This document shows positions 10,869 to 42,920 of a stretch of DNA of 64,000 nt, piece by piece. Origin of the DNA: Thauera sp. (lineage in GTDB: Bacteria; Pseudomonadota; Gammaproteobacteria; Burkholderiales; Rhodocyclaceae); assembly GCA_024235615.1 (NCBI GenBank), contig JACKMB010000001.1:1-64000 (forward strand), given 5' to 3'. A model generated the notes under the pieces. It worked only from the letters and a program-made list of their open reading frames with translations, had not been told where the DNA came from and ran no database searches. The position numbers and the translations under genes are program-made. Numbering within the stretch: the stretch's first letter is position 1; every line of letters begins with the position of its first letter.

Positions 10869-11176
10869 ATTCGCGGCCGCCGCCGCTCCTGCAGAAGCCG
10901 GCGCGGTTCCGTCCAATGTAGGAGCGCCGGCAGGCGCGAATGCGGCGGTGAGGCAAGCGGCAATGTCGGCATTCCGCAAGCCCGATTCGCGGCTGCCGCC
11001 GCTCCTGCAGAAGCCGGCGCGGTTCCGTCCAATGTAGGAGCGCCGGCAGGCGCGAAAGCGGCGTTGAGGCAAGCGGCGATGTCGCCATCGCGCAAGCCCG
11101 ATTCGCGGCTGCCGGCACTCCTGCAGGAACCGGCGGGGTCTCTGTGGGAGCGTGTAGGAGCGGCGGCAGCTGCGAA
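10869..11176. repeat. REP-like array 1 (six elements, 116-bp tandem unit)
   Basis: Fills most of the 416-bp gap between thpR and tRNA-Leu. Forward GTAGGAGC-headed elements lie at 10918-10940, 11034-11056 (subtype A) and 11154-11176 (subtype B with a G-U wobble). Inverted copies lie at about 10869-10893, 10986-11009 and 11101-11124. The stretch from about 10870 is a 116-bp tandem duplication, about 2.2 copies, carrying one inverted and one forward element per unit. Confidence 0.9.
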
Positions 11177-11236
11177 TGCGCGGAGCGGATTCGGCGGGCG
11201 TCGATTCCAGCCCGCCGGGACGCGAGGCGGCGCGTG

Positions 11237-11242
11237 TATAAT
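11237..11242 (+). promoter_or_regulatory. -10 box of the tRNA-Leu gene
   Basis: TATAAT lies 28 bp upstream of the mature tRNA 5' end. A convincing -35 is not seen at 16-18 bp. A GC-rich stretch follows the -10, which resembles a stringent discriminator, though this is an inference. Confidence 0.55.
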
Positions 11243-11270
11243 GCTCTCCGCTTCGCTTGTCGGGGTGTGT

Positions 11271-11355
11271 GCGGGGATGGCGGAATTGGTAGACGCACTG
11301 GATTTAGGTTCCAGCGCCGCAAGGCGTGAGAGTTCGAGTCTCTTTCCCCGCACCA
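11271..11355 (+). tRNA. tRNA-Leu, anticodon TAG
   Basis: An 85-nt class II tRNA with CCA encoded. Acceptor stem GCGGGGA pairs with TCCCCGC, the discriminator is A, and the 3' end is CCA (11353-11355). The D arm contains GGTAGAC. The anticodon stem CTGGA/TCCAG encloses TTTAGGT, giving anticodon TAG (reads CUA/CUG). A long variable arm (GCCGCAAGGCG region) and the T arm AGTTCGAGTCT complete it. The class II variable arm and anticodon agree with leucine. Confidence 0.97.
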
Positions 11356-11383
11356 AGGTTTTGTCTAAGGCACCCCACGAACG

Positions 11384-11402
11384 CGCGCCGCGAGGCGGCG
11401 CG
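11384..11402 (+). terminator. GC-rich hairpin downstream of tRNA-Leu
   Basis: CGCGCCGC and GCGGCGCG form an 8-bp stem with a GAG loop, 29 bp after the tRNA. There is no following T-run, so this is a possible processing or termination hairpin, not a canonical intrinsic terminator. Confidence 0.3.
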
Positions 11403-11621
11403 TACAAGCTGCCCGGTGAAGCGCTCAAGCGTGACTAGCCCCTTCACCCTCCATATCCATAACAGTGAGAATATGTGTTATGTAAACTGCGATATCCTTG
11501 TCGAAGTACGCCTGACCGCACCGACACACACTGGAATGACGACGCTGCCCCGCCTATCCTGAAAGCGACTGAGACCAACCGACTGGCCGTTCTCGAGGCA
11601 TATCACCAACCGGGGTGCCGC

Positions 11622-12119
11622 ATGCCAGACACCGAAGGCAAGCCCGACTTCATGGAAAAGTTCGTGCTCAGCGAGATTGCCGGCAAGAAAGCGGCGATCC
11701 ATGCCTACGACGGCATCGTCTGGAAGATCCGCAGCGGGTTCCTGACCCTGACCTTCGGGGGCTGGGCGATCATGCTGCAGAGCCTGGCAGGAAGAGACCA
11801 GGCACCGCATGACTACAAGCCGCTGGTTTGGGGACTGTATCTGTTCAGCCTCGGCTTCACTCTCGGGGCATGGTTTGTCGACCGCAGCTACATCCAGCGC
11901 AAGTTCCGGGTGATCATTGCACTGGACCGCCTGACTGAAGTGCTCACCGCGCGAGGTGGTGACTGCTCCGGTATACCCGCCGATCTGCTGATCATCGCGG
12001 GTGACAACGCAATCAAGCCGTATGATTGTGCCGGCTACCGCAACGCGTTGAAGGCTGAGTCCGTCGTCTATCTGGCGCCCCTTACGGTCATCTTCGCGGT
12101 CGTTTTCTGGCTGCTCTAG
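11622..12119 (+). CDS. Small membrane protein of unknown function, three predicted membrane helices
   Basis: 165 residues from the ATG at 11622 (MPDTEGKPDFME), which follows GGGGTG; in-frame upstream codons to 11475 look non-coding. Three hydrophobic segments are visible: about residues 38-57 (LTLTFGGWAIML), 66-86 (LVWGLYLFSLGFTLGAW) and the extreme C-terminus 147-165 (VYLAPLTVIFAVVFWLL). A charged loop (RKFRVIIALDRLTEVL) lies between the second and third. I recognise no family. Codon use is less GC-biased than the flanking core genes, and the gene sits at the head of the accessory segment after tRNA-Leu. It ends 23 bp before the cupin start, so the two may be co-transcribed. Confidence 0.6.
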   Translation: MPDTEGKPDFMEKFVLSEIAGKKAAIHAYDGIVWKIRSGFLTLTFGGWAIMLQSLAGRDQAPHDYKPLVWGLYLFSLGFTLGAWFVDRSYIQRKFRVIIALDRLTEVLTARGGDCSGIPADLLIIAGDNAIKPYDCAGYRNALKAESVVYLAPLTVIFAVVFWLL

Positions 12120-12142
12120 ACGACATGCGTTCAGGAGGTCTC

Positions 12143-12511
12143 GTGATTTCCAGCTTTGATCCAGGCACCGAGTTCCTGACGCCCGAACGGTGCTACATCG
12201 TCGAGATCCAAAACTGCGCGCATGATCCTGCCTGCTCGATTGCGCGGGCGCGGGTGGCGCCAGGCGTCACCACACAACTCCACGCGCTTCGCGATACCGA
12301 CGAGCGCTACGTGCTCCTGCACGGCCAAGCCGAGATTGAAGTGGGTGGCGGTCCATCCTTGCCCGTTAAGCCGCTCGATGTGGTTCTCATCCCTGCGGGA
12401 TCTTCACAGCGAATCACCAATACTGGCGATGGTGACCTGATCTTCCTGTGCGTCTGCACGCCGAGATTCAACTCCGCGAACTACATCAACCTCGAGCGGC
12501 CAGGCGGATGA
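12143..12511 (+). CDS. Cupin-domain protein
   Basis: 122 residues from the GTG at 12143, chosen because a perfect AGGAGG (12133-12138) lies 4 nt upstream; an in-frame ATG at 12125 would add six residues without a ribosome site. A single small cupin: ARVAPGVTTQLHALRDTDERYVLLHGQAEIEV (metal-binding motif 1 has H and E positions but is partly degenerate), then PLDVVLIPAGSSQRITNTGDGDLIFLCVCTPRF (motif 2, with Q in place of the usual second-motif histidine). It resembles mannose-6-phosphate isomerase-like stand-alone cupins, but no substrate can be named. Metal binding may be altered given the missing histidine. Confidence 0.7.
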   Translation: MISSFDPGTEFLTPERCYIVEIQNCAHDPACSIARARVAPGVTTQLHALRDTDERYVLLHGQAEIEVGGGPSLPVKPLDVVLIPAGSSQRITNTGDGDLIFLCVCTPRFNSANYINLERPGG

Positions 12512-12617
12512 TGAAATTTTGCAGGTTGATCATTTCGAATTTGCTCGCGGGGAAATTCGTAGTGCCAGCCGATCCGTCGCCGTGTGCGGCCTGGCGACGC
12601 CACCCCGCATCGATCCC

Positions 12618-13814: not shown

Positions 13815-14071
13815 GGCTGCTTTCTCCTGGTTCCTGTCGCTGTCCGACGCAGACCCCCGGCCATTGCAGCGCCGAGGCCTCTCCCTGCCGCGCAAAGACG
13901 CAGTCGCGGCGAGGCGCGTGGCGCGAGCCGCCCCACGCACATCGCCAAGCTCGCAAGGCTCGATGCTACTGCAGGGTCCTCACCCGTGTTGAACCAGTAC
14001 AACGCTCCTTCAAACTCGCCAGTGGGCTGATAGGATCGCGCCGTCTCCTCAGCTTGCCTGGCCGATCCACC

Positions 14072-14251
14072 ATGCCCCCACTCCCCCTTCCGACACCGCC
14101 CGCAGACAGCCGGGGAACGCGCGCCGCGCTGATCTTCGCGCTCACTGCCGAGCGCCTGTCGATCCACTACGAGCACGGCCAGTGGCTCACCGAGGCCCAG
14201 GGCGCGAGCTTCATCGCCGACTGGCTCCGACCTGAATCCGTGTTCGCTTAG
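14072..14251 (+). CDS. Small hypothetical protein, 59 residues, beside the IS element
   Basis: An open frame from the ATG at 14072 reading MPPLPLPTPPADS, then a compact ordered part ALIFALTAERLSIHYEHGQWL and ending SFIADWLRPESVFA. I do not recognise it. A -10-like TAGGAT lies about 40 bp upstream. It stops 70 bp before the transposase start, and the insertion may have removed or altered its C-terminus. The 250 bp between it and rtcB hold no other gene that I can support. Confidence 0.35.
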   Translation: MPPLPLPTPPADSRGTRAALIFALTAERLSIHYEHGQWLTEAQGASFIADWLRPESVFA

Positions 14252-14284
14252 CCGGAAATCCAGCCTAACGCATTGATGTAATTG

Positions 14285-15682: not shown

Positions 15683-15872
15683 TGCAAATCCGACGGCCGA
15701 ATTCTCCGAATCGAGGCCATTTCGCTGCGGCGAAAGGGCGACGGCCGCGTGGGAGCAGGAAAATGACGTAGCGCACCCCCCGTAAGCCCGGCTCGCCGGG
15801 CCTCCGGGCCGTGAAAGGACGGTGCTCGGGGCTGCGGTGAGCTGAGATTGGGAGTCAGGCAGCAGAAAAATC

Positions 15873-16136: not shown

Positions 16137-16226
16137 GCGGGTTGCGGGTTTAGGTCTTTTTCCTCACCCATCACTGACTGAGCCCTCGGCCGCCGTTCAA
16201 TCCCATCACGGGGCGCTGCGCCCTCC

Positions 16227-25154: not shown

Positions 25155-25556
25155 TTCGCGCCTCCCGGCGCTCCTACAGGTGCGTGCGGAGGTGCCGGGG
25201 GTGATATCGACGCGCGTCGATGGCCGATCGCCCGTTTCCGGAGCGAACCTGCGCCGGCTTCTCGCCCGAACCCGCGCCGGTTTCATGTAGGAGCGCCGGC
25301 AGGCGCGAATGCGGCGTTGGAGAATTCGACGGCCGTCGATCGCCCGCCCGCCCAATTCGCGCCTGCCGGTGCTCCTACAGGTGCGTGCGTAGGCGCCGCG
25401 GCCGAGTTTAACGCGCGCCGATGGCCGATCGCCGGTTTCCGGCCCGAACCTGCGCCGGTTTCATGTAGGAGCGCCGGCAGGCGCGAATGCGGCGTCGAGG
25501 ATCTCGATGCACGTCGATCGTGCCACCGCCCAATTCGCGCCTGCCGGTGCTCCTAC
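25155..25556. repeat. REP-like array 2 (five elements, 178-bp tandem unit)
   Basis: Fills the gap between the sirtuin and GH13 genes. Forward subtype A elements at 25287-25309 and 25465-25487; inverted copies at 25155-25177, 25356-25378 and 25534-25556. The last two have GCACC in place of GCGCC. The forward pair and the last inverted pair are each spaced 178 bp, showing a tandem duplication. The final element overlaps the GH13 stop codon. Confidence 0.9.
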
Positions 25557-27262
25557 ATTTTCCCAACGCGGTATACGCGTGCCTCGTAGGGCGCGAGGTC
25601 GAGCGCGTGTGTCGCGGGGTGCGGCTCGACCGCGCGGTTGGCGAGCAGCAGGCGCTCGTGGCGAAGCACCACGCCGGGGTGATCGAAGCGCGCCTGGCGC
25701 TGACTCAGGTTGACGATCACCGCGATGCGCTCGCCGTCGAGCCGACGCTGGTAGGCGAAGATCTGCGCGTCGTCCTTCATCAGCAGGCGGTAGTCGCCGT
25801 GAAGCAGCGCCGGTTCGGCCTTGCGCAGCGCGATCAGGCGGCGGTAGTGGTTGAGCACCGAGGCCGGGTCGTGGCGCTGCTGGGCGACGTTGATGCGACG
25901 GTGGTTGGGATTGACCGCCAGCCAAGGCCGCCCGCGGGTGAAGCCGGCCTGCGGGCCGTCGTCCCACTGCATCGGCGTGCGCGCCGGGTCGCGGCCGGTG
26001 AGTACGAGGTCGGCGATGATCGCGCGCTCGTCCTCGCCAGCCAGGCGGCGCTGGGCGTAGTCGTTCTTGGCCAGCACGTCGTCGAAGTCCTCGATGTGCT
26101 CGAAGACGCCGTTGGTCATGCCGATCTCCTGGCCCTGGTAGATGAAGGGCGTGCCCTCCATCAGGAAGTACATGGTCGCCAGCGCGGTCGCGCTCTCGCG
26201 CCACAGCGCGCCGGTGTCGCCCCACTTGGAGACGACGCGCGGGATGTCGTGGTTCTCGAGGAAGAGCGCGTTCCAGCCCTTGCCGTGCAGTGCATGTTGC
26301 CAGCGTGACAGCACCTTCTTGAGCGCGACCACGTCGAGGGGTGCGCCCGGCGCGCGCGACCACAGCGCGAGGTGCTCGAACTGGAAGATCATGTCGAGCC
26401 GACGGCGGTCGGTGCCCACCCAGTCGATCGCCTGATGCGGGCCGACCCCGTTGGCCTCGCCCACGGTCATCACGTCGTAGCGGCGGAAGGTCTCGCGGCA
26501 GAGCTCGTCGATGTGGTCGAGCACGCCGTCGACGTTCATGTGCATCGGGAAGGACGGCACCCAGGGCAGGCCGTGCGGATTGGGCAGGTCGGGCAGGCCG
26601 GGCATCTTGCGGATGTGGCTGACCGCATCGAGGCGGAAACCGTCGATGCCCTTGTCCAGCCACCAGTGCACGATTTCGTAGAACGCCGCGCGCATCCCGG
26701 CGTTGGTCCAGTCGAGGTCGGGCTGGCGGCGGGTGAACAGGTGCAGGTAGTACTGTCCGGTGGACGGGTCCCGGGTCCACGCGGGGCCGCGGAAGATGCT
26801 CTCCCAGTTGTTGGGCGGATGGCCGTCGCGGCCCTCGCGCCAGAGGTACCAGTCGCGCTTGGGGTTGTCGGTCGAGGCCCGCGACTCGAGGAACCAGGGG
26901 TGCTCGTCGCTGGTGTGGTTGAGCACCAGGTCGAGGATCAGCTTCATGCCGCGGCGGTGGACCTCGGCGAGCAGGCGATCGAAGTCTTCCATAGTGCCGA
27001 AGGTCGGCAGGATCTTGCGGTAGTCGCGGATGTCGTAGCCGTTGTCGTCGTTGGGCGAGTCGAAGATCGGGCAGATCCAGATCACGTCGACGCCCAGCCA
27101 TTGCAGGTAGTCGAGCCGCGTGAGGATGCCGCGCAGGTCGCCGATACCGTCTCCGTCGCTGTCCATGAAGCTGCGCGGGTAGAGCTGATAGGCGACGGCG
27201 GATTTCCACCAGGGGGTCGAGGCAGCGGTGGCGGGCGCGGGGATGGGCGTAGTCAGGGACAT
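25553..27262 (-). CDS. GH13 alpha-glucosidase / oligo-1,6-glucosidase family enzyme
   Basis: 569 residues, typical for bacterial alpha-glucosidases of GH13. Motifs: VAYQLYPRSFMDSDGDGIGDL (first part family-typical), DLVLNHTSDEHPWF (region I), GFRLDAVSHI (nucleophile Asp near 206), VGEANG (general acid Glu near 281), ENHDIPR (third Asp), and DPARTPMQWDD. The QPDLDWTN segment also fits. It hydrolyses terminal alpha-glucosidic bonds in maltose or isomaltose-type sugars, so it can feed glucose to the neighbouring glucokinase. The TAG stop lies inside the GTAG head of a REP-like element (25553-25556), so the last codons (YRVGKM) abut the repeat. Exact linkage specificity is undetermined. Confidence 0.9.
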   Translation of the reverse strand: MSLTTPIPAPATAASTPWWKSAVAYQLYPRSFMDSDGDGIGDLRGILTRLDYLQWLGVDVIWICPIFDSPNDDNGYDIRDYRKILPTFGTMEDFDRLLAEVHRRGMKLILDLVLNHTSDEHPWFLESRASTDNPKRDWYLWREGRDGHPPNNWESIFRGPAWTRDPSTGQYYLHLFTRRQPDLDWTNAGMRAAFYEIVHWWLDKGIDGFRLDAVSHIRKMPGLPDLPNPHGLPWVPSFPMHMNVDGVLDHIDELCRETFRRYDVMTVGEANGVGPHQAIDWVGTDRRRLDMIFQFEHLALWSRAPGAPLDVVALKKVLSRWQHALHGKGWNALFLENHDIPRVVSKWGDTGALWRESATALATMYFLMEGTPFIYQGQEIGMTNGVFEHIEDFDDVLAKNDYAQRRLAGEDERAIIADLVLTGRDPARTPMQWDDGPQAGFTRGRPWLAVNPNHRRINVAQQRHDPASVLNHYRRLIALRKAEPALLHGDYRLLMKDDAQIFAYQRRLDGERIAVIVNLSQRQARFDHPGVVLRHERLLLANRAVEPHPATHALDLAPYEARVYRVGKM

Positions 27263-27361
27263 GGTCGTGGCGCTCGGGGAATCTGCGGTCCATTGTAGGC
27301 CTGCGGCCGGTCGATGAAGACGTGCCACGAGCTGGAGGATGGCACGGGCCGGAGCGCCGCA

Positions 27362-27596
27362 TTCGCGCCTGCCGGCGCTCCTACATACGACCTCGCTCGG
27401 CAAGCGGTCAGCACGCTCCCGGGGCCGCAGCGAGCGCATTTCTCCACCGGCACGCAGCACCCCAGCCCCTCGGCCGCCCGCCCACCCACGACCCGACGCC
27501 CCTGTAGGAGCGCCGGCAGGCGCGAATCACCCGCCCGGCAACAGCACCGCCACCCACGAACCGACGGCCCCTTGTAGGAGCGCCGGCAGGCGCGAA
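27362..27596. repeat. REP-like array 3 (three elements)
   Basis: Lies in the 422-bp gap between the GH13 gene and glk. Inverted subtype A at 27362-27384; forward copies at 27504-27526 and 27574-27596, which are 70 bp apart with similar flanking sequence (a 70-bp duplication). The rest of the gap holds nothing recognisable apart from glk's upstream region. Confidence 0.88.
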
Positions 27597-27684
27597 GCAG
27601 CCGGCGCAGAACGCCCCTCGCCCGCCGACCGACCCGACTCAGATGCCTTCAAGCTGTGGCGCCGCGTGGCAGAATTGGCTCCAC

Positions 27685-28695
27685 ATGAACCGCGCCTCCG
27701 CCCCCTACCCTCGCCTCGTCGCCGACATCGGCGGCACCAACGCGCGCTTCGCCCTGGTCGAGGCGCCGGGTGCTGCTCCGACGCAGCTGCGCTCACTGCG
27801 CTGCGCCGAGCACGCGGGCCCCGAGGCGGCGTTGCGCGCCTGGCTCGAGGCCACCCGCACCCGGCTGCCCGACTACGCGGCCTTCGGCATCGCCACCCCG
27901 ATCGACGGCGATGCGGTGGCGATGACCAATCACCCCTGGCGCTTCTCCATCGGCACGCTGCGCGCCGCGCTCGGCCTGCGCCGACTCACCGTGGTGAACG
28001 ACTTCACCGCGCTCGCACTCTCGCTGCCTGCACTCGGCGACGACGACCTGGTCCGCGTCGGCGGCGGTGAGGCGCGTGCCGACTCCGCGCGCGCGCTGAT
28101 CGGTGCCGGCACCGGGCTCGGCGTGTCGGGGCTGCTTCCGGCGCCGGGAGGCTGGGTGCCGCTGCAGGGCGAGGGCGGACATGTGACGCTGCCGGCCACC
28201 AACGCACGCGAAGCCGCGGTCGTCGCCTGGCTCGGCGCACGCCACGGCCACGTCTCGGCCGAACGCGTGCTCTCAGGGCCGGGCCTGGTCGCGCTCCACG
28301 AGGCCTTGTGCGCACTCGACGAGGTCCCGCATGTCGAGCGCACCGCGGCCGAGATCACCGAACACGCGCTGGCGGGCGGCTGCCACCACTGCGTCGAGGC
28401 GCTGGAGCTCTTCTGCGCGCTGCTCGGCACGGTCGCGGGCGATCTCGCGCTCACGCTGGGCGCGCGCGGTGGCCTTTACATCGGTGGTGGGATCGTGCCG
28501 CGGCTGGGCGATTTCTTCCTGCGCTCCGCCTTCCGCGAGCGCTTCGTGGCCAAGGGCCGCTTCCGTCCCTGGCTCGAGCAGATCCCGACCTGGGTGATCC
28601 TCGCCCCCCACGCCGCCCTGACCGGCGCCTCTGCGGCCCTGGATGGCGCGATCGAGGTCGGCTTCACCGCCCTCGCCGAGCCGCCCCCCCCGTAG
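27685..28695 (+). CDS. glk: Glucokinase
   Basis: 336 residues of the bacterial GlkA/ROK-unrelated type. The phosphate loop is LVADIGGTNARFAL near residue 10. FGIATPIDGDAVAMTNHPWRF, VVNDFTALALSLPAL (catalytic Asp in NDF), GAGTGLGVSGL, LQGEGGHVTLPA and LYIGGGIVPRL follow in the standard order. It phosphorylates glucose to glucose-6-phosphate. Position beside the GH13 enzyme and the glycogen genes suggests that it recycles glucose released from oligosaccharides. A purine-poor leader with AGAATT about 15 bp before the ATG hints at a very short leader. The upstream frame to 27643 is not needed for the domain. Confidence 0.94.
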   Translation: MNRASAPYPRLVADIGGTNARFALVEAPGAAPTQLRSLRCAEHAGPEAALRAWLEATRTRLPDYAAFGIATPIDGDAVAMTNHPWRFSIGTLRAALGLRRLTVVNDFTALALSLPALGDDDLVRVGGGEARADSARALIGAGTGLGVSGLLPAPGGWVPLQGEGGHVTLPATNAREAAVVAWLGARHGHVSAERVLSGPGLVALHEALCALDEVPHVERTAAEITEHALAGGCHHCVEALELFCALLGTVAGDLALTLGARGGLYIGGGIVPRLGDFFLRSAFRERFVAKGRFRPWLEQIPTWVILAPHAALTGASAALDGAIEVGFTALAEPPPP

Positions 28696-28711
28696 AAGCG
28701 TCACGGTTCAT

Positions 28712-28922
28712 GTAGGAGCGCCGGCAGGCGCGAAGGTGGCGTCGATGGCCTGCGACCGCGTCGCCCGCCGCACCGCCCGATTCGCGGCCGCCGCCGCTCC
28801 TACAGAGGCCGTGCCCGCGTGGTGGTTTGTGTAGGAGCGCCGGCAGGCGCGAAGGTGGGGTCGATGGCCTGCGACCGCGTCGCCTGCTGCACCGCCCGAT
28901 TCGCGGCTGCCGCCGCTCCTAC
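28712..28922. repeat. REP-like array 4 (four elements, 119-bp tandem unit)
   Basis: In the 421-bp gap between glk and glgB. Forward subtype A at 28712-28734 and 28831-28853; inverted subtype B at 28781-28803 and 28900-28922. Both pairs are exactly 119 bp apart, so the whole unit (one forward A, one inverted B) is duplicated. A degenerate third copy may follow at about 28948-28970. Confidence 0.9.
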
Positions 28923-29117
28923 AGGGGCTGTGGGCGCGTGGCGGTTTGTGTGGGCGCGGCGGTAGCCGCGTCGGGGGCTGGAACGTTCCGGACGCACGGC
29001 TTTGGGGGCGATTCGTTGCAGCGCAAAACACGCGAAAGTTTTATCCTTGGGGCTGTCGGGCGTGCTTCGCTGCGACGCAACGAAGAAACGCCCGGCACTC
29101 GAACCGGAGAGGCGCAG

Positions 29118-31379
29118 ATGCGCGGCGAAAAGCAGACCGGCAGGGCCGCAACGCGAAAGAGCGTTGTAGCGAATTCCTTGCAGGCGATGAACCCGGACCT
29201 CGCCCGGGTGGCCCCAGAGTCCTTGCAGTCCTTGCTGCAGGCGAGTCATCCCGACCCCTTCGCGCTGCTCGGCGCGCATGCGGTCGCGGGCGGCGTGGTG
29301 CTGCGCGCGCTGCTGCCCGGCGCCCGCCAGGTCGTGGCGCTCGATCACGACGGCAAGATGCTGCTCGAGCTGCAGCCCCAGGACGGCTCCCCCCTCTTCG
29401 TCGGCGCGCTCCCTGCACGCGCACTGCCGCTGCGCTACCACCTGCACGTGCACTGGGACGACGGCGGCGAGACGCACTTCGACGACGCCTACCGCTTCGG
29501 CGCGCTCATCGAGGATCTCGACGTCTGGCTGCTTGCCGAAGGCAGCCATCACCGCCCCTACGAGTGGCTGGGTGCGCACCCGGTGACGGTAGACGGGGTG
29601 GCCGGCACGCGCTTCGCGGTGTGGGCACCCAACGCGCGCCGGGTCTCGGTGGTCGGCGGCTTCAACGCCTGGGACGGGCGCCGCCACATGATGCGGCACC
29701 GCCGCGAGTGCGGGGTGTGGGAGATCTTCGTGCCCGGCATCGGCGAGGGCGAGCTCTACAAGTACGAGGTCCTCGGTGCCGACGGCGTCGTCCGCCTCAA
29801 GGCCGACCCCTTCGCCTTCCGCGCCGAGCTGCGCCCGCATACCGCCTCGGTGGTGCAGCGCCTGCTGCCCGGGCTGGCGATCGACGAGAGCCGCCGGCGC
29901 GTCAACGCGCTCGACGCGCCGATCAGCATCTACGAGGTTCATCTCGGCTCCTGGCAGCGCAAGGAGGACGGCGGCTGGCTGTCCTACCGCGAGCTCGCCG
30001 AGCGCCTGGTGCCCTACGCAGTCGAGCTCGGCTTCACCCATCTCGAACTAATGCCGGTGCACGAGCACCCCTTCGACGGCTCCTGGGGCTACCAGCCCAC
30101 CGGGCTGTACGCACCGAGCGCGCGCTTCGGCACCCCTGAGGATTTTCGCGCCTTCACCGACGCTGCGCGCGCGGCCGGGCTGGGGGTGATCCTCGACTGG
30201 GTGCCGGCGCACTTTCCGAGCGACGCGCACGGCCTGGCCGAGTTCGACGGCACCCACCTGTACGAGCACGCCGACCCGCGCGAAGGCTTCCACCAGGACT
30301 GGAACACGCTGATCTACAACTACGGCCGCGCCGAGGTGCGCAACTACCTCGCCAGCAACGCGCTGTACTGGATCGAGCGCTTCGGCGCCGACGGCCTGCG
30401 GGTGGATGCGGTGGCCTCGATGCTGTACCGCGACTACAGCCGCAAGGCCGGCGAGTGGGTGCCGAACCGCTTCGGCGGACGAGAGAACCTGGAGGCGATC
30501 GACTTCCTGCGGCGCATGAACCACCTCGTCGGCACGCAGCGCCCCGAGGCGATCACGCTCGCGGAGGAATCGACCGCCTTCCCCGGCGTCAGCCGCCCGC
30601 CCTCGCCCGACCTGCAGGGCGGCGGACTGGGCTTCCACTACAAGTGGAACATGGGCTGGATGAACGACCTGCTGGCCTACCTGGCGCGCGACCCGGTGCA
30701 CCGCAGGCACCACCACGACCAGCTGCGCTTCTCGCTGGTGTACGCCTTCAGCGAGAACTTCGTGCTGCCGCTGTCGCACGACGAGGTGGTGCACGGCAAG
30801 GGCTCGCTGCTCGCCAAGATGCCGGGCGACGACTGGCAGAAGTTCGCCAACCTGCGCCTGCTCTACGGCTACATGTGGGCGCATCCGGGCAAGAAGCTGC
30901 TCTTCATGGGCTGCGAGTTCGCGCCGTGGGCCGAATGGAACGCCGATGCCAGCCTGCCCTGGACGCTGCTCGGGCAACCCGCACACGCCGGCATGCAGCG
31001 CCTGGTGCGCGACCTCAACCGCGTGCTGCGCAGCCATCCGGCGCTGTACGAGCTGGACACGGCGAGCGCCGGTTTCCGCTGGATCTCCCACGACGACGCG
31101 GCGCACTCGGTGCTGGTCTTCGAGCGCCGCGCGCGCGACGGCTGCGGTGTGGTGGTGGCGTGCAACTTCACCCCGGTGGCGCGCGAGGGCTGGCGCATCG
31201 GCGTGCCGGCGGCGGGCACCTGGCGCGAGCTCATCAACACCGACGATGCGGTGTATGGCGGTTCGGGCGTCACCAACGGCACGCTGCCAGCCGAGTCCGT
31301 GCCCTGGCAGGGCGAGGCGCAGTCGATGGTGCTGCGCCTGCCGCCGCTGGGCGTGGCGATGTTCGTGCACGAGGACTGA
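29118..31379 (+). CDS. glgB: 1,4-alpha-glucan branching enzyme
   Basis: 753 residues from the ATG at 29118, preceded by GGAGAGG. It moves a segment of an alpha-1,4 chain to a 6-OH. An N-terminal carbohydrate-binding module ([22 protein letters not shown], about 160-180) precedes the GH13 core: [39 protein letters not shown] (nucleophile Asp), [11 protein letters not shown] (acid Glu), [12 protein letters not shown]. The extra N1 domain (from about residue 30, [17 protein letters not shown]) is the long bacterial form. The next start, MNPDLARV at 29187, is an alternative. It is the first gene of glgB-glgX-glgC-glgA; glgX follows after 34 bp. Confidence 0.96.
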
Positions 31380-31413
31380 CTCGCATGGACGCACGGCCCA
31401 GGAGACCGCAGCG

Positions 31414-33798
<2,385 letters not shown>

Positions 33799-33800
33799 TC

Positions 33801-35069
33801 ATGCCTGCCGAAGCTGCCAACCGACGACGGATCCTCACGCGCAGCACCCTCGCCCTCGTGCTCGCCGGCGGGCGCGGCTCGCGCCTGCGCGATCTCACCA
33901 ACGTGCGCGCCAAGCCGGCGGTGCACTTCGGCGGCAAGTTCCGCATCATCGACTTCGCGCTGTCGAACTGCATGAACTCGGGCCTGCGCCGCATCGGGGT
34001 GATCACCCAGTACAAGTCGCACTCGCTGCTGCGCCACCTGCAGCGCGGCTGGAGCTTCCTGCGCAACGAGATGGGCGAGTTCGTCGACCTGCTGCCGGCG
34101 CAGCAGCGCACCGACGAGGAACACTGGTACCAGGGCACCGCCGACGCGGTCTTCCAGAACCTGGACATCATCCGCAACTCCACCCCGCCCGACTACATCG
34201 TCGTGCTCGCCGGCGACCATGTGTACAAGATGGACTACTCGATCATGCTCGAGGACCATGTCGCGAGTGGCCGTGGCGTCACCGTCGGCTGCATCGAGGT
34301 GCCGCGCGAGGAGGCCAGGGCCTTCGGCGTGATGGCGATCGACGAGCGGCGCCACATCACCGCCTTCGTCGAGAAGCCCGCCGACCCGCCGCCGATGCCG
34401 GGCAACCCGGAGCTGTCGCTCGCCAGCATGGGCATCTACGTGTTCTCGGCCGACTACCTCTACCACCTGCTCGAGGACGACGCGAGGAATCCGGACTCCA
34501 GCCACGACTTCGGCAAGGACCTGATCCCGCGCGCGGTGGCCGAGCACCAGGCGCTCGCCCACCCGTTCACGCTGTCGGCAATCGCCACCCCGCCCTTCTC
34601 CGGCCCCTACTGGCGCGACGTCGGTACGGTCGATGCCTACTGGGCGGCCAACCTCGACCTCGCTTCGACCACGCCGGCGCTCAACATGTACGACAAGGAC
34701 TGGCCGATCTGGACCTACCAGGAGCAGCTGCCGCCGGCCAAGTTCGTCCATGACCTCGACGGCCGCCGCGGCGAGGCGATCAACGCGCTGGTGTCGGGCG
34801 GCTGCATCGTCTCGGGATCGGTCGTGCGCGAGTCGGTGCTGTTCTCCAACGTGCTGGTGCGCTCCTACAGCACGATCGAGCAGGCGGTGGTGCTGCCCGA
34901 TGTGCAGATCAACCGCCATTGCCGCCTCAAGAAGGTGGTCATCGATCGCCGCTGCGTGATCCCCGAGGGCACCGTGATCGGCGAGGACGCCGAGGACGAT
35001 GCGCGCCGCTTCCACCGCACCGAGGGTGGCGTGGTGCTGGTGACGCGCGAAATGCTCGACCGACTCTGA
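33801..35069 (+). CDS. glgC: Glucose-1-phosphate adenylyltransferase (ADP-glucose pyrophosphorylase)
   Basis: 422 residues, normal length. It makes ADP-glucose from ATP and glucose-1-phosphate, the committed, allosterically controlled step of glycogen synthesis. Features: [37 protein letters not shown] (activator/ATP site Lys; shown in part), [37 protein letters not shown] (Glc-1-P site Lys), then the left-handed beta-helix C-terminus ([20 protein letters not shown]). The start lies 2 bp after glgX, with CAGGAG upstream. Confidence 0.96.
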
Positions 35070-35085
35070 GCCGGGGGACGAGACG

Positions 35086-36546
35086 ATGCGGATCCTTCAG
35101 GTTTGTGCCGAGATCTTCCCGTTGCTGAAGACCGGCGGGCTGGCCGACGTCGCGGGGGCGCTGCCACCGGCCCTGGGCGCGCTCGGGGCCGACGTACGGG
35201 TATTGCTGCCCGGCTTCGACGCCATCCTCGCCGGGCTGGAGTCGCCCGTCGAAGTCGCCCGCCTGCAAGCGCCGGGCGAGATGGGGAGCCACCCCGCGCG
35301 CCTGCTGCGGGGGCGCCTGCCCGCGGCCGGGGCGGACGCCTACGTGATCGACGCCCCAGGCTGGTACCGGCGCGCGGGCGGCCCCTACGCCGACGCTGGG
35401 CAGCAGCCCTACGCCGACAACCACCTGCGCTTCGGCCTGCTCGGGTGGAGCGCGGCCGAGCTCGCCCAGGGGCTGGACGCGTCCTGGCAGCCCGACGTGC
35501 TGCACGCGCACGACTGGCACGCCGGCCTCGTCCCCGCCTGGCTGCAGGCCGCGGCGACGAGCGGGCGGCAGCTGCCGGGCTGCGTGTTCACGGTGCACAA
35601 CCTCGCCTACCAGGGCCTGTTCCCGCGCGCCTGCTTCGATGCGCTCGGGCTGCCGGCGCAGTTCTTCTCGATCCACGGCGTGGAGTTCCACGGCCAGCTC
35701 AACTTCATGAAGGCCGGGCTGTATTACGCCGAGCGCGTCACCACGGTGAGCCCGAGCTATGCGCGCGAGATCCAGGCGCCGGAACAGGGCTGCGGGCTGG
35801 ACGGCCTCTTGCGCGCCCGTGCGCACGAGCTCTCGGGCATCCTCAACGGCGTCGATGCGGCGGTGTGGGATCCGGCCACGGACGCGCTGCTGCCGGCGCG
35901 CTACATGGCGGACGACATGGCAGGCAAGGCGCGCTGCCGCAGCGCGCTGAGGCGCGAGCTCGGGCTGGAGGTCAAGGCAGACGGCCCGCTGTACTGCGTG
36001 GTGAGCCGGCTCACCGCGCAGAAGGGCCTGCACCTGGTGCTGCAGGCGCTGCCCGCGCTGCTGGCGGGCGGCGGCCAGTTCGCCCTGCTCGGCAGCGGCG
36101 ACGCCGGTCTGGAGGCCGCCTTCCGCGACGCGGCCGCGGCGACGCCGGATGCGGTGGCGGTGCGTCTCGGCTACGACGAGGCCTTCGCCCACCGCCTGAT
36201 CGCCGGCAGCGACGTGATCCTGGTGCCCTCGCACTACGAGCCCTGCGGGCTGACCCAGCTCTACGGCCTCAAGTACGGCACCCTTCCCTTGGTGCGGCGT
36301 GTCGGTGGCCTGGCCGACACGGTGGCCGACACACGACTCGAGACGCTGGACACCGACGCCACCGGCTTCGTCTTCGAGGAGTTCTCCGCCGCTGCGCTTG
36401 AGCGCACGCTGCAGCGCGTGCGCGCCCTCCACCGCCGCCCGGCCGAATGGCGACGCGTGCGCGCCCGCGGCATGGCGCAGGACTTCGGCTGGGCCCGCGC
36501 CGCCGCCGACTACCTCGCCCTCTACCGCGGCCTCATGCCAATGTAG
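35086..36546 (+). CDS. glgA: Glycogen synthase (ADP-glucose type)
   Basis: 486 residues, GT5 family. KTGGLADVAGALPPAL near residue 15 is the ADP-glucose-binding loop. HAHDWHAGLVPAWL, FTVHNLAYQGLFP, ILNGVDAAVWDPATD, VVSRLTAQKGLHLV and PSHYEPCGLTQLYGLKYGTLPLVRRVGGL (the C-terminal nucleotide and acceptor site; key part YEPCGLTQLYG) are intact. The reaction extends alpha-1,4-glucan. The start follows GGGGGAC 16 bp after glgC, and the genes are probably one transcript. The TAG stop is part of the GTAG head of a REP-like element at 36543-36546. Confidence 0.96.
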   Translation: MRILQVCAEIFPLLKTGGLADVAGALPPALGALGADVRVLLPGFDAILAGLESPVEVARLQAPGEMGSHPARLLRGRLPAAGADAYVIDAPGWYRRAGGPYADAGQQPYADNHLRFGLLGWSAAELAQGLDASWQPDVLHAHDWHAGLVPAWLQAAATSGRQLPGCVFTVHNLAYQGLFPRACFDALGLPAQFFSIHGVEFHGQLNFMKAGLYYAERVTTVSPSYAREIQAPEQGCGLDGLLRARAHELSGILNGVDAAVWDPATDALLPARYMADDMAGKARCRSALRRELGLEVKADGPLYCVVSRLTAQKGLHLVLQALPALLAGGGQFALLGSGDAGLEAAFRDAAAATPDAVAVRLGYDEAFAHRLIAGSDVILVPSHYEPCGLTQLYGLKYGTLPLVRRVGGLADTVADTRLETLDTDATGFVFEEFSAAALERTLQRVRALHRRPAEWRRVRARGMAQDFGWARAAADYLALYRGLMPM

Positions 36547-36875
36547 GAGCGCCGGCAGGCCCGCAGGAGCGCTCGCCGACGCACAACGCCGCCCAAGCGC
36601 AGCATTCGCGCCTGCCGGCGCTCCTACAGGAAACCATCATCGCTCGAAGGGGGGGCGAGCACCGAACCCTCGCCGCTCCTGGAGGAGACCATCGAGTCCT
36701 CGCCGCCTCCTGTAGGAGCGCCGGCAGGCGCGAAGGAGGCTGCACCGACGCGATTCGCATGTGCGAAGGCCCGATTCGCGGCTGCCGCCGCTCCTACACG
36801 AGCCCATCCCGGCTCGGTGGGTGGCACGAACATCGAGCCCGCACCGCTTCCTGTAGGAGCGCCGGCAGGCGCGAA
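36543..36875. repeat. REP-like array 5 (five elements) between glgA and glgP
   Basis: In the 475-bp gap. Elements at 36543-36565 (forward, 3' part diverged), 36605-36627 (inverted A), 36712-36734 (forward A), 36775-36797 (inverted B) and 36853-36875 (forward A). The first element starts inside glgA. A partial CCGCTCCTGGAGGAG stretch near 36672 is a damaged copy. The remaining about 145 bp to the glgP start hold its putative promoter. Confidence 0.9.
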
Positions 36876-36942: not shown

Positions 36943-36948
36943 TAAAAT
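36943..36948 (+). promoter_or_regulatory. Putative -10 box of glgP
   Basis: TAAAAT, 73 bp upstream of the glgP ATG, in an otherwise GC-rich gap right after the last REP element. No matching -35 at 16-18 bp, so the assignment is tentative. Confidence 0.35.
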
Positions 36949-37021
36949 ACCGGGTTTCGCCTCCGCGCGTCATGTGCCGCGCGCGGGCGCCACCCGTTTC
37001 CCGGAACGCCAGCGAATTCTC

Positions 37022-39496
<2,475 letters not shown>

Positions 39497-39610
39497 GGGG
39501 AAGGCGGGGATAAGCGCATTGGATCACGGGGCCGCACCGTTTCCATGACGCGCCCCGCCGGGTCCGCGCGATAATCGTGCTGCAGTGCACGCAAAGACAG
39601 GGAGCCCATC

Positions 39611-41470
39611 GTGGCGACAGCAGAACTCGAAGACATCCTCGAACGGCACCGGCGCGATCCGCTGCAGTTGCTGCAGATCCTGATCGAGCTCCAGGCCCGG
39701 GACGGCTGGCTTGCGCCGGCCACCCTCGGCGCGTTGGCCGACGCGCTCGGCATGCCGCGCGCCCGTGTCGAGAGCACGGCGAGCTTCTACAGCTTCCTGC
39801 ACACCCGGCCGGCGGGCGAGTACCGCATCCTGTTCTCGGACAACATCACCGACCGCATGCTGGGCAACCAGGCGCTGATGCAGGCGCTGTGCGACAAGCT
39901 GTGGCTGCAGCCGGGCAAGGTGTCGGAGGACGGCCTGGTGAGCGTGGCGACCACGTCTTGCACCGGCATGTGCGACCAGGGGCCGGCGCTGCTGGCCAAC
40001 GGGCGCACGGTCACCCGCCTCACCCCGGAGCGCATCGACGAGATGGCGCACCTGATCCGCCGTCGCGTGCCGGTGGGAGACTGGCCGCCGGAGTGGTTCC
40101 ACGTCGAGGACAACATCCGCCGCCGCGACGTGCTGCTCGACCACGGCCTGGCACCCGGCGCGGCGCTCGCTGCGGCCCTGGAGCGCGGCCCCACCGGCTT
40201 GCTGTCGGAGATCGAACGCTCCGCGCTGCGCGGCCGCGGCGGCGCGGGCTTCGGCAGCGACATCAAGTGGCGCTCGTGCCGTGACGCCTGGGGCGACGCG
40301 CACTACGTCATCTGCAACGCCGACGAGGGCGAGCCCGGCACCTTCAAGGACCGCGTGCTGCTGTCGAGTTACTTCGACCTGGTGGTCGACGGCATGTGCA
40401 TCGCCGGCATGGCGATCGGCGCCAACAAGGGCTTCATCTATCTGCGCGGCGAATACCGCTACCTGCTCGACCGCCTCGAGACGCGGCTCGCCCAGCGCCG
40501 CGAACAAGGCCTGCTCGGGCGCAACATCCTCGGCCGCGGCTTCACCTTCGACATCGAGATCCACCTCGGCGCCGGGGCCTACATCTGTGGCGAGGAGTCC
40601 GCGCTCATCGAGTCGCTCGAGGGCAAGCCGGGCAAGCCGCGCATCCGCCCGCCCTTCCCGGTCACCAACGGCTACCGCGGCCAGCCGACCACGGTGAACA
40701 ACGTCGAGACGCTCGCGCTCGCGGCGTTGATCGCGGTGCGCGGTGGCGAGTGGTTCCGCGCCATCGGCACCCCGGCCTCGACCGGCACCAAGCTGCTGTC
40801 GGTGTCGGGCGACGTGGCGCGCCCGGGCATCTACGAGTTTCCCTTCGGCGTCAGCGTCACCGAGGTGCTCGAGGCCGCCGGCGCGCGCGACACGCAGGCG
40901 GTGACCAGCGCCGGCGCGGCCGGGCATTGCCTGGCGGCGGACGAGTTCGGCCGCCGCATCGCCTTCGAGGACGTCGCCACCGGCGGCTCGATCATGGTCT
41001 TCGACGCCTCGCGCGACATGTTCGAGGTGGCGCGCAACTTCGCCCACTTCTTCGCGCACGAGAGCTGCGGCTTCTGCACGCCCTGCCGCGTCGGCACCGC
41101 GGTCAACGCGCGCCTGCTGGACAAGCTCGCCGCCGACCACGGCTCGCCCTACGACCTCGACGAGATCGCGAAGATGCACCGCCTGATGCAGGGCGCCAGC
41201 CACTGCGGCCTGGGCAACACGGCGACGATCGCGATCGACGACATGCTGGCCAAGTTCCGCCCCGCCTTCGAGCGCCGCCTGCACTCGCCCGACTACGAGC
41301 CCGCCTTCGACCTCGACGCCGCGCTGTCACAGGCGCGCCGGATGACCGGCCGCGACGACCCCGGCGCCCACCTCGGCGACAACCACGAGGCGCTGGCCGA
41401 GGCGCGGCCCCATGCGCAGGGCGCCCACTCCTCCGCCGACCCGGTCTCGGCAAAGGATCTGCAGCCATGA
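39611..41470 (+). CDS. hoxF: NAD-reducing hydrogenase diaphorase subunit HoxF (fused NuoE/NuoF-like)
   Basis: 619 residues with a GTG start and AGGGAG upstream. The first about 150 residues are a NuoE/HoxE-like domain (LQARDGWLAPATLGALADALG) that keeps only two of its four cluster cysteines, in TSCTGMCDQGPA. The NuoF-like part has the FMN loop RGRGGAGFGSDIKW, the NADH site GAGAYICGEESALIESLEGKPG (key GEESAL), and a 4Fe-4S site ESCGFCTPCRVG plus HCGLGNT. It passes electrons between NAD(H) and the hydrogenase. The stop overlaps the hoxU start. GATAAT at 39570-39575 is a possible -10. Confidence 0.95.
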   Translation: MATAELEDILERHRRDPLQLLQILIELQARDGWLAPATLGALADALGMPRARVESTASFYSFLHTRPAGEYRILFSDNITDRMLGNQALMQALCDKLWLQPGKVSEDGLVSVATTSCTGMCDQGPALLANGRTVTRLTPERIDEMAHLIRRRVPVGDWPPEWFHVEDNIRRRDVLLDHGLAPGAALAAALERGPTGLLSEIERSALRGRGGAGFGSDIKWRSCRDAWGDAHYVICNADEGEPGTFKDRVLLSSYFDLVVDGMCIAGMAIGANKGFIYLRGEYRYLLDRLETRLAQRREQGLLGRNILGRGFTFDIEIHLGAGAYICGEESALIESLEGKPGKPRIRPPFPVTNGYRGQPTTVNNVETLALAALIAVRGGEWFRAIGTPASTGTKLLSVSGDVARPGIYEFPFGVSVTEVLEAAGARDTQAVTSAGAAGHCLAADEFGRRIAFEDVATGGSIMVFDASRDMFEVARNFAHFFAHESCGFCTPCRVGTAVNARLLDKLAADHGSPYDLDEIAKMHRLMQGASHCGLGNTATIAIDDMLAKFRPAFERRLHSPDYEPAFDLDAALSQARRMTGRDDPGAHLGDNHEALAEARPHAQGAHSSADPVSAKDLQP

Positions 41471-42198
41471 ACGACTCCTTCCTGCTCGACGGCGAGGACA
41501 TCCCCTTCACGCCCGGCCAGACCGTGATGCAGGCCGCGGCCGCCGCGGGCAAGTACATTCCGCACCTGTGCTGGCATCCGGACTTCGCCGCGCACGGCTC
41601 GTGCAAGCTGTGCACGGTCAAGATCGGCGGCCGCTTCGCCACCTCCTGTACGGTGCGCGCCGCCGCCGGCCAGGAGGTGGAGAACCGCACTGAAGAGCTC
41701 GACGCCAAGCGCCGCACGCTGCTGCAGCTGCTCTTCGTCGAGGGCAACCACTTCTGCCCGTCGTGTGAGAAGAGCGGCGACTGCGCGCTGCAGGCCACGG
41801 CCTACGAGATGGGGATGCTGACGCCGCACTTCGACCACTTCTACCCCGACCGTCCGGTCGACGCTTCGCACCCCGACGTGCTGCTCGACTTCAACCGCTG
41901 CATCCTGTGCGAGCTGTGCGTGCGCGCCAGCCGCGATGTCGATGGCAAGAACGTGTTCGCGCTCGCCGGGCGCGGCACCCGGTCGCACCTGGTGGTCAAC
42001 AGCGACACGGGGCGCCTCGCCGACACCGACTTCGCCGCCACCGACCGCGCCGCCGCGGTGTGCCCGGTGGGGGTGATCCTTAAAAAACGGGTGGGCTTCG
42101 CGGTGCCGATCGGGCTGCGCACCTACGACCGCAAGCCGATCAGCGCGGGTATGGGCGCCGACGACAAGGCCGGCGCGGGCATCGGGGAGGCCGGCTGA
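41467..42198 (+). CDS. hoxU: NAD-reducing hydrogenase diaphorase subunit HoxU
   Basis: 243 residues, NuoG N-terminal-like iron-sulfur protein. A 2Fe-2S plant-ferredoxin domain (HLCWHPDFAAHGSCKLCTV, then FATSC), a His/Cys 4Fe-4S motif (NHFCPSCEKSGDC), and a further cluster motif with CILCELCVRASRDV and CPVGVI. It wires HoxF to the hydrogenase module HoxYH. The start overlaps the hoxF stop by 4 bp and the stop abuts hoxY (1-bp overlap), so translation is coupled. Confidence 0.95.
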   Translation: MNDSFLLDGEDIPFTPGQTVMQAAAAAGKYIPHLCWHPDFAAHGSCKLCTVKIGGRFATSCTVRAAAGQEVENRTEELDAKRRTLLQLLFVEGNHFCPSCEKSGDCALQATAYEMGMLTPHFDHFYPDRPVDASHPDVLLDFNRCILCELCVRASRDVDGKNVFALAGRGTRSHLVVNSDTGRLADTDFAATDRAAAVCPVGVILKKRVGFAVPIGLRTYDRKPISAGMGADDKAGAGIGEAG

Positions 42199-42773
42199 TG
42201 CGTATCGAGACCACGAACGGCGCGGGAGGCGCGCCACGCAAGCTCAAGGTGGCGACCGTGTCGCTGGCGGGCTGCTTCGGCTGCCACATGTCCTTCCTCG
42301 ACATCGACGAGCGCCTGCTGCCGCTGCTCGAGCTCGTCGAGTTCGACCGCTCGCCGATCACCGACATCAAGCACTGCGGCCCCTGCGACATCGGGCTCAT
42401 CGAGGGCGGGGTGTGCAACGCCGAGAACGTGCACGTGCTGCGCGAGTTCCGCGCCAACTGCAAGGTGCTGATCGCGCTCGGCGCGTGCGCGGTCAACGGC
42501 GGCCTGCCGGCGCAGCGCAACCACCTCGAGCTCGCCGACATCCTGCAGGAGGTCTACCGCACCGGCCACGGCCTCGCGGAAGGCAGCCGCATCCCCGACG
42601 ACCCCGAGCTGCCGCTGCCGCTGAACCAGGTCCATCCGGTGCATGAGGTGGTGAGGATCGACTACTTCTTGCCGGGCTGCCCACCCTCGGGCGATGCGAT
42701 CTGGACCTTCCTGACCCAGCTGATCGAGGGCAAGGACCCCAGTCTCGGACATGGGCTGCTGCATTACGACTGA
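42198..42773 (+). CDS. hoxY: NAD-reducing hydrogenase small subunit HoxY
   Basis: 191 residues. The small-subunit cluster cysteines are in SLAGCFGCHMSF, KHCGPCDIGL, LGACAVNGGLP and FLPGCPPSGDAIW, giving the proximal 4Fe-4S site of the [NiFe] hydrogenase. There is no Tat signal, as expected for a cytoplasmic enzyme. It is separated from hoxH by 231 bp that hold three REP-like elements, so the operon is interrupted by repeats. Confidence 0.94.
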   Translation: MRIETTNGAGGAPRKLKVATVSLAGCFGCHMSFLDIDERLLPLLELVEFDRSPITDIKHCGPCDIGLIEGGVCNAENVHVLREFRANCKVLIALGACAVNGGLPAQRNHLELADILQEVYRTGHGLAEGSRIPDDPELPLPLNQVHPVHEVVRIDYFLPGCPPSGDAIWTFLTQLIEGKDPSLGHGLLHYD

Positions 42774-42780
42774 GGCCGCT

Positions 42781-42920
42781 TTCGCGCCTGCCGGCGCTCC
42801 TACAGACACCCTCGCGGCGTGGCCCGACGTAGGGGCGGCGGCAGCCGCGAAGCGGACGACCGGAGGTGCGACGCGCGTGCCGTCCCCGATTGCCGTTTTC
42901 GCGCCTGCCGGCGCTCCTAC
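42781..42920. repeat. REP-like array 6 (three elements) inside the hox operon
   Basis: Between hoxY and hoxH. Inverted subtype A at 42781-42803 and 42898-42920, and a forward subtype B copy (GTAGGGGC variant) at 42829-42851. The two inverted copies are 117 bp apart and share flanking AGACACCCTCG, so they arose by duplication. Confidence 0.9.

What the first reader, a model, noticed from the sequence alone, without database searches (positions are those of the whole stretch)
10869..42920. GTAG-headed REP elements with a compensatory stem swap (26 copies in the window)
Seen: a 23-bp element begins GTAGGAGC, ends GCGAA and occurs 26 times in six intergenic clusters, in both orientations. Subtype A has stem GCGCC-GGCA-GGCGC; subtype B has GCGGC-GGCA-GCCGC. 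The fourth base pair flips from C:G to G:C on both arms while the GGCA loop stays constant, and one copy has a G-U wobble. That covariation points to selection on a hairpin. Known: REP elements mobilised by RAYT (TnpA-REP) transposases start with GTAG and form imperfect hairpins, and opposite-facing pairs form REPINs. Inference: this is a RAYT-type REP family with two diverged subtypes. No RAYT gene is in the window.
Basis: partly seen in the sequence, partly recalled or inferred. Interest (0 to 1): 0.75.

Follow-up and report, generated by a model that had tools for sequence, protein, structure and literature searches.

The report
Thauera REP hairpins with mismatched ends
A bacterial genome carries over a thousand copies of a tiny DNA hairpin, thought to be mobile, often in pairs whose two ends differ by one flipped base pair; at most of the few matching places that could be compared with a related species, the hairpin tip differs while its surroundings are alike.

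Summary
In detail: 26 of 26 copies in the window, 1,168 in the 4.01 Mb genome. Covariation is near-total: 545 A, 297 B and 8 mixed of 850 exact copies, about 389 mixed expected if arms were independent. The family reading holds: the genus is Thauera, and a REP-associated transposase (RAYT) sits among such REPs outside the window. Thauera REPs and a RAYT are already in print. 'Two diverged subtypes' is not the best reading: A and B are mostly the two ends of one inverted pair (REPIN). Of 72 pairs, A-B 42, A-C 15, A-A 11, with a mixed copy 4, B-B 0. Folding suggests that unlike ends keep both small hairpins but cost the long hairpin about 7.5 kcal/mol. The newer part lies outside the window: at 13 flank-anchored orthologous REPs shared with a sister species the loop differs in 11; a control species kept it in 13 of 16. 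Loop class follows RAYT clade in the Thauera loci compared. The published 'orthoswitch' model expects old copies to stay and decay.

The parts
10870..10892 (-). REP, B type (loop GGCG, head GCAG)
10918..10940 (+). REP A, end of A-B REPIN 10918-11008
10986..11008 (-). REP B (head GCAG), partner end of that REPIN
11034..11056 (+). REP A, end of REPIN 11034-11124
11102..11124 (-). REP with mixed arms (decayed), partner end
11154..11176 (+). REP B with G-U wobble
25155..25177 (-). REP A, loop GGGA
25287..25309 (+). REP A, end of A-A REPIN 25287-25378
25356..25378 (-). REP A, partner end
25465..25487 (+). REP A, end of A-A REPIN 25465-25556
25534..25556 (-). REP A, partner end; overlaps the stop codon of the alpha-amylase ORF by 4 bp
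27362..27384 (-). REP A, within the called alpha-amylase ORF, whose true start is uncertain
27504..27526 (+). REP A
27574..27596 (+). REP A
28712..28734 (+). REP A, end of A-B REPIN 28712-28803; this cluster has a flank-anchored A orthologue in G026 with loop GCAA
28781..28803 (-). REP B (loop GGCG), partner end; flank-anchored orthologue in G026 has loop GCCA
28831..28853 (+). REP A, end of A-B REPIN 28831-28922
28900..28922 (-). REP B, partner end
36543..36565 (+). REP A, eroded on its 3' side; overlaps the stop codon of the glycogen synthase ORF by 4 bp; flank-anchored orthologue in G026 has loop GCAA
36605..36627 (-). REP A
36712..36734 (+). REP A, end of A-B REPIN 36712-36797
36775..36797 (-). 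REP B, partner end
36853..36875 (+). REP A
42781..42803 (-). REP A
42829..42851 (+). REP B, end of B-A REPIN 42829-42920
42898..42920 (-). REP A, partner end

Best explanation
These are GTAG-family REPs of a Thauera genome, many arranged as REPINs (two inverted REPs, GTAG outside, spacer mostly 44-49 bp), and most likely copied by one RAYT encoded on another contig. Subtypes A and B (and a third, C) are mainly the two different ends of one asymmetric REPIN. Each end must keep its own stem so that the RAYT can recognise a small hairpin in single-stranded DNA; that selection gives the compensatory C:G to G:C flip. Making the two ends different leaves both small hairpins intact but weakens the long hairpin that would join the ends. 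Shown here: copy number, covariation, pairing bias, a RAYT flanked by these REPs, the loop-RAYT link. Inferred: transposition, RAYT recognition, and that the asymmetry is kept because it favours the two-hairpin fold or escapes hairpin-cutting repair.
For: 545 A, 297 B and 8 mixed of 850 exact copies; 389 mixed expected under independence. RAYT P0001 hits NF047646 at 145 bits (cut-off 80) and has 7 REPs around it. Inverted pairs: own 72 (A-B 42, A-C 15, A-A 11, A-mixed 3, B-mixed 1, B-B 0); G024 70 (A-B 37, A-C 23, A-A 8, B-B 1, D-D 1); G026 64 (A-B 53, A-A 7, A-mixed 2, B-B 2). Counting the first pair of each cluster, unlike pairs with an A end are 25 of 36, 21 of 28 and 26 of 30; 33, 43 and 1 of 5000 shuffles are as high. 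DNA-parameter folding of clean REPINs with GGCA loops: the long hairpin beats the two-hairpin fold by 19.9 kcal/mol in A-A (n=12) and 12.4 in A-B (n=50), while the two-hairpin fold is equally stable (-24.0, -24.1). Spacers carry some direction when read from the A end (own 0 of 2000 random orientations as high; G026 4; G024 52).
Against: A-A pairs exist (11 of 72), so asymmetry is not obligatory. Some other Thauera REPINs have like ends: L038 and L043 and the TTCA-loop pairs listed for G018. The long hairpin stays the more stable fold in 12 of 12 A-A and 50 of 50 A-B REPINs, so asymmetry only narrows the gap. Descent from one A-B master element could explain the pairing without selection. Tandem arrays inflate the raw pair counts. 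No movement was observed. Stretches were sampled; those of G024 and G026 and part of the own C2 stretches were chosen because they held REP hits.
Confidence: 0.8

Rival explanations
1. Two REP families diverged independently, each with its own spread, lying side by side by chance or site preference.
For: Two clear sequence classes; clusters with A only exist (e.g. 25155-25556).
Against: No B-B pair among 72 in the own-genome sample; one RAYT above the NF047646 cut-off in the genome; A and B share head, tail and loop here, and in G026 both carry the other loop class.
Confidence: 0.07
2. The asymmetry is only inherited: a master A-B REPIN was copied many times and the flip has no function.
For: Spacers are slightly more alike when read from the A end, as descent from one oriented master predicts. 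Some REPINs of other Thauera have like ends (L038, L043; G018).
Against: At other Thauera RAYT loci the ends differ in other ways (stem pair A:T versus G:C in L048, loop base in L037, head GTGG versus GTAG in L039, outer stem in L044), which hints at repeated arrival at unlike ends.
Confidence: 0.3
3. Selection acts on an RNA hairpin (terminator, mRNA 3' end protection), not on DNA mobility.
For: 23 of 26 window copies are clear of the eight ORFs checked and two overlap stop codons; the literature proposes RNA roles.
Against: Tandem arrays of alternating orientation and an unpaired GTAG head conserved on one side fit a DNA-level RAYT substrate better. No expression data were at hand.
Confidence: 0.1
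4. For the loop change only: the sister species lost old REPs and gained new ones at the same intergenic spots, so the copies only look orthologous.
For: Of 33 aligned REP pairs at 14 loci, 20 have flank identity under 70% and only 11 pass 70% over at least 35 columns; 4 of 22 loci have no clean REP in G026. Turnover is real.
Against: The 13 pairs pass flank thresholds set on 5,805 non-orthologous pairs, on both sides. At L321:11590 the sequences beside the REPs are nearly identical (with one 37-base gap nearby) and the REPs differ at the two loop bases plus two bases of one copy.
Confidence: 0.3

Closest known systems
GTAG-1 REPs of Thauera sp. MZ1T (Di Nocera et al. 2013, PMC3733652; abstract, the sections on GTAG families and on dimers, and passages seen)
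   Same: Genus, GTAG head, two bases before a 5-bp stem, three conserved bases after it, clustered copies. The paper also says that most families have subfamilies with alternative complementary stem residues and that many dimers are heterodimers.
   Different: The figure with the consensus is not held, so identity to MZ1T copies was not checked. The parts seen do not describe loop change at orthologous sites.
Thauera RAYT and REPs (Nunvar et al. 2010, PMC2817692; passages seen)
   Same: A RAYT with Pseudomonas-like REPs in high number in a Thauera genome.
   Different: Asymmetric ends and loop classes of Thauera REPs are not in the passages seen; whether the strain is the same was not checked.
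REPINs of Pseudomonas fluorescens (Bertels and Rainey 2011, PMC3116915; passages seen)
   Same: Inverted REP doublets with a spacer and a cognate RAYT; the paper contrasts a long-hairpin with a clover fold.
   Different: GI REPINs there are described as symmetrical; here the ends mostly differ by a compensatory flip.
Asymmetric REPINs of enterobacteria (noted in PMC8049555; passages seen)
   Same: The two REPs of a REPIN differ.
   Different: There by a one-base insertion or deletion; here by a base-pair flip that keeps stem length.
REP orthogroups and 'orthoswitch' in Pseudomonas and Stenotrophomonas (Nunvar et al. 2013, PMC3686654; abstract, first part of the results, section 8 seen)
   Same: REP classes change beside orthologous RAYTs; abundance follows the RAYT.
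   Different: Their model has old REPs staying and decaying; here flank-anchored orthologous copies carry the other loop.

Membership tests
GTAG REP element | Unpaired GTAG head followed by a short palindrome | tested here: met
GTAG REP element | Stem kept by compensatory changes | tested here: met
   842 of 850 exact copies have matched arms
GTAG REP element | High copy number | tested here: met
   1,168 copies at up to 3 mismatches
GTAG REP element | Extragenic placement | tested here: inconclusive
   23 of 26 window copies clear of eight Pfam-supported ORFs; not tested genome-wide
RAYT-mobilised REP/REPIN | Cognate RAYT (Y1 HUH) flanked by the same REPs | tested here: met
   L032: P0001, NF047646 145 bits, PF01797 28 bits, 7 REPs
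RAYT-mobilised REP/REPIN | Inverted doublets of fixed spacing | tested here: met
   64 of 72 own-genome pairs, taken with gaps of 30-60, have a gap of 44-49
RAYT-mobilised REP/REPIN | RAYT binds and cuts the REP; the element moves | not testable with these tools
   Only indirect: 4 of 22 orthologous loci lack a clean REP in G026
Thauera GTAG-1 family of Di Nocera 2013 | 5-bp stem, two unpaired bases after GTAG, 3-bp motif after the stem | tested here: met
   GTAG-GA-5 bp-loop-5 bp-GAA
Thauera GTAG-1 family of Di Nocera 2013 | Same consensus as strain MZ1T | not tested
   The figure is not held
IS200/IS605 insertion sequence | Transposase gene itself present in several mobile copies | tested here: not met
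   One match to P0001 in the own genome; two Y1_Tnp hits in all

The most novel reading that the evidence does not exclude
REP hairpins are overwritten in place. When the loop class of a lineage changes (GGNA or GCNA, each tied to its own RAYT group), resident dispersed REPs are converted at their old sites with spacers and flanks left alone, perhaps because RAYT-made single-stranded REPINs anneal to other REPs at the replication fork, or because the RAYT exchanges hairpins between sites. The REP population would then follow its transposase without losing its places.
Probability: 0.4. Interest if true: 0.75.

Novelty: new member of a known kind. Interest (0 to 1): 0.5.

Why it matters
Di Nocera et al. 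wrote that the preference for heterodimers 'has no obvious explanation'; the flip seen here keeps each small hairpin while cutting the long hairpin's advantage by about 7.5 kcal/mol, which can be tested on single-stranded DNA. Second, the model seen in print for a change of REP class has new copies spreading beside decaying old ones. Flank-anchored copies that carry the other loop point to conversion in place instead, and Thauera species pairs make that directly testable by genome comparison.

Tried and rejected
Rejected: two independent families (0 B-B of 72 pairs). Rejected: A and B matched to separate RAYTs; one RAYT is over the NF047646 cut-off, and the second Y1 gene, L031, scores 78.9 against a cut-off of 80 with no match to this REP pattern in its 3.3 kb locus. 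Rejected as source of the whole pattern: DNA exchange between species. One tract of G024 is 96-100% identical to G026 around clusters 3 and 4 and carries the G026 loop class, so it was probably imported, but that cannot explain changes confined to the loop elsewhere. Those two loci did not pass the flank filter in the control comparison with G024; under the filter one such pair passed, with a changed loop (again 13 of 16 the same). Under the filter the own-G026 comparison gave 17 pairs at 9 of 16 loci, loop the same in 2; two of the 17 are not clean REPs.

Left open: direction of the loop change. In the own genome GCNA loops are commoner in decayed copies (5 of 69) than in intact ones (2 of 342; p 0.002), and in G026 GGNA shows the same trend (3 of 21 against 7 of 202; p 0.06), so the ancestor may have been mixed. 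Led nowhere: no RAYT was found in G026 at E 1e-10; its assembly is 77% complete, and of the RAYT's neighbour gene only a 25-base match was found. G008 gave only 7 inverted pairs. G024 against G026 gave 2 usable pairs, both at one locus of the probably imported tract. Stem type was the same in 12 of 13 orthologous pairs, but most are A, so this is weak.

Literature: searches for REP or REPIN with asymmetric, gene conversion, concerted evolution, orthologous plus loop, orthoswitch, and BIME with gene conversion listed no paper whose listing or passages seen describe in-place loop change; several listed papers were not opened, and the library lacks most subscription papers. Higgins et al. 1988, seen only as a title in reference lists, raised gene conversion for REPs.

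Full report
WHAT IS THERE. The 26 copies are real (26 matches at up to 3 mismatches; mean 0.00 in 100 shuffles). Genome-wide there are 1,168 copies in 4.01 Mb, 581 forward and 587 reverse, with 1 match to the reversed control pattern. The nearest named RAYT relative is that of Thauera phenylacetica B4P (99% identical), whose contig has the length of the contig holding the G024 match, and G024 is of the same genus as the window. Among 61 genomes searched, own included, 22 hold the pattern at up to 2 mismatches, all in this genus.

COVARIATION. Exact copies with head, outer stem and tail fixed and the loop free: A 545, B 297, and all four combinations of C and G at positions 10 and 17 together 850. 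So 8 are mixed; about 389 would be expected if the arms were independent. A third subtype C has T at positions 9 and 18; it could pair in a shifted register, which is my reading of the letters and not a computed fold.

THE RAYT. Two Y1_Tnp hits lie on contig C5. One, P0001 (151 aa), matches NCBIfam NF047646 at 145 bits (cut-off 80) and PF01797 at 28 bits; its one PDB sequence match at E up to 0.001 is 4er8, TnpA-REP. It holds an HLH motif and a downstream tyrosine, read by eye. It is flanked by 7 REPs, five A (one with a mismatch) and two C. Of 15 RAYT loci listed, 12 have clearly repeated GTRG hairpins nearby, one has a single copy, one is doubtful and one has none (my reading of the list). 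Thauera REPs and a Thauera RAYT are in print (PMC3733652; PMC2817692 passages).

A AND B ARE TWO ENDS. In 864 kb of the own genome 72 inverted pairs with GTAG outside and a gap of 30-60 were found: A-B 42, A-C 15, A-A 11, A-mixed 3, B-mixed 1, B-B 0. In G024: 70 (A-B 37, A-C 23, A-A 8, B-B 1, D-D 1). In G026: 64 (A-B 53, A-A 7, A-mixed 2, B-B 2). Taking the first pair of each cluster, unlike pairs with an A end number 25 of 36, 21 of 28 and 26 of 30, against shuffle means of 17.1, 14.0 and 15.3; 33, 43 and 1 of 5000 shuffles are as high. Spacers, first A-B or A-C pair per cluster, are slightly more alike when all are read from the A end (0.620 against 0.591 in the own genome; 0, 52 and 4 of 2000 random orientations as high in own, G024 and G026). 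This fits a REPIN with defined ends.

WHY UNLIKE ENDS. With DNA energy parameters, the fold with two separate hairpins has nearly the same energy for A-A (-24.0, n=12) and A-B (-24.1 kcal/mol, n=50) REPINs with GGCA loops, while the long hairpin falls from -43.8 to -36.5. The flip is a change that each small hairpin does not feel and the long hairpin does. The long hairpin remains favoured in all 62, so this is a shift, not a switch. PMC3116915 (passages) supposes that the long fold is poorly recognised by RAYT and the clover fold well; PMC3733652 suggests protection from SbcCD. Either would favour unlike ends. At some other Thauera RAYT loci the ends differ in other ways: A:T against G:C at the same stem pair (L048), loop base (L037), head (L039), outer stem (L044). 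Against this, L038 and L043 show pairs with like ends, as do the TTCA-loop pairs listed for G018. Asymmetry is thus common here but not a rule of the genus.

LOOP AND RAYT. In a tree of 46 RAYTs with at least two clean flanking REPs, the first two loop bases are clustered (14 changes against a shuffled mean of 23.8, 0 of 200 as low). In Thauera the GG-loop RAYTs (own, G024, G019, two of G008) form a supported group (99/96) and the GC-loop RAYTs (G020, one of G012, G015, G004, plus one record labelled Verrucomicrobiota) another (98/94). Over the whole tree the label is not perfect: GG needs 3 changes and GC 2, and the TT and CT labels are intermixed. One row was skipped, one ambiguous label kept, and the locus L047 of G008 is labelled GG though 5 of its 19 REPs have GCCA. 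PMC8266576 (abstract and part of the discussion) reports that single loop positions are critical for two RAYTs.

LOOPS DIFFER AT ORTHOLOGOUS SITES. The own genome and G024 mostly use GGNA loops and G026 GCNA (GGCA 347 of 401 in own and 163 of 215 in G024; GCAA, GCGA and GCCA together 204 of 223 in G026). Own clusters were placed in G026 by flanks on both sides: 22 of 109 clusters, 4 of them without a clean REP in G026. REPs were paired only if 40 bp on each side passed thresholds from 5,805 non-orthologous pairs. That left 13 pairs at 9 loci. The loop differs in 11 of 13 (position 13 in 11, position 14 in 10) and is GGCA in both species in the other 2; the other 21 positions together differ 12 times; stem type is the same in 12; flank identity is 0.84. 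Against G024 the same procedure gave 16 pairs at 7 loci (one of them not a true REP); the loop is the same in 13, flank identity 0.865 (11 of 13 against 3 of 16, p 0.0007). At L321:11590 own and G026 run nearly identical beside the REPs apart from one 37-base gap, and differ at the loops. At 16% divergence per site, 7 of 9 loci changed has probability 7e-5. The published model for class change (PMC3686654 section 8) has old copies staying and decaying. Most loosely aligned copies (20 of 33 have under 70% flank identity) cannot be judged, and loss and gain of copies is going on as well.

VERDICT. The finding is sound as an observation. The family is a known kind in a genus already reported. The better reading of the two subtypes is two ends of one element. 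The loop difference at orthologous sites is the part worth a second look; its numbers are modest and the sister genome is incomplete.

Noticed in passing
window 36543-36546 and 25553-25556: In two of six clusters a REP overlaps a gene end by 4 bp, so that its GTAG supplies the TAG stop codon (glycogen synthase ORF 35086-36546; alpha-amylase ORF 25553-27460).
   Followed up: partly
window 25155-36875: Four of the six REP clusters lie beside genes of glycogen or maltose metabolism (alpha-amylase, glucokinase, glycogen synthase, phosphorylase).
   Followed up: no
window 11271-11355: tRNA-Leu gene about 95 bp after REP cluster 1.
   Followed up: no
L031 973-1860 (-): Second Y1 transposase-like gene, 295 aa with an extra C-terminal part, no match to this REP pattern in its 3.3 kb locus, just below the RAYT family cut-off.
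   Followed up: no
L203 (G024:C121) 5829-7570: Tract with flanks 96-100% identical to G026 and with its loop class, while the other compared loci of the two are 89-96%: probably imported DNA.
   Followed up: partly
G008 whole genome: Strong strand bias: A copies 35 forward and 4 reverse; B copies 2 forward and 32 reverse.
   Followed up: no
L100 (record labelled Verrucomicrobiota MAG): Its RAYT is almost identical to that of G004 (Thauera sp. 28) and its REP loops are of the same class, so the contig is probably misbinned.
   Followed up: no
L065 3593-4836: One tandem array of 21 nearly alternating A and B copies, period about 118 bp.
   Followed up: no
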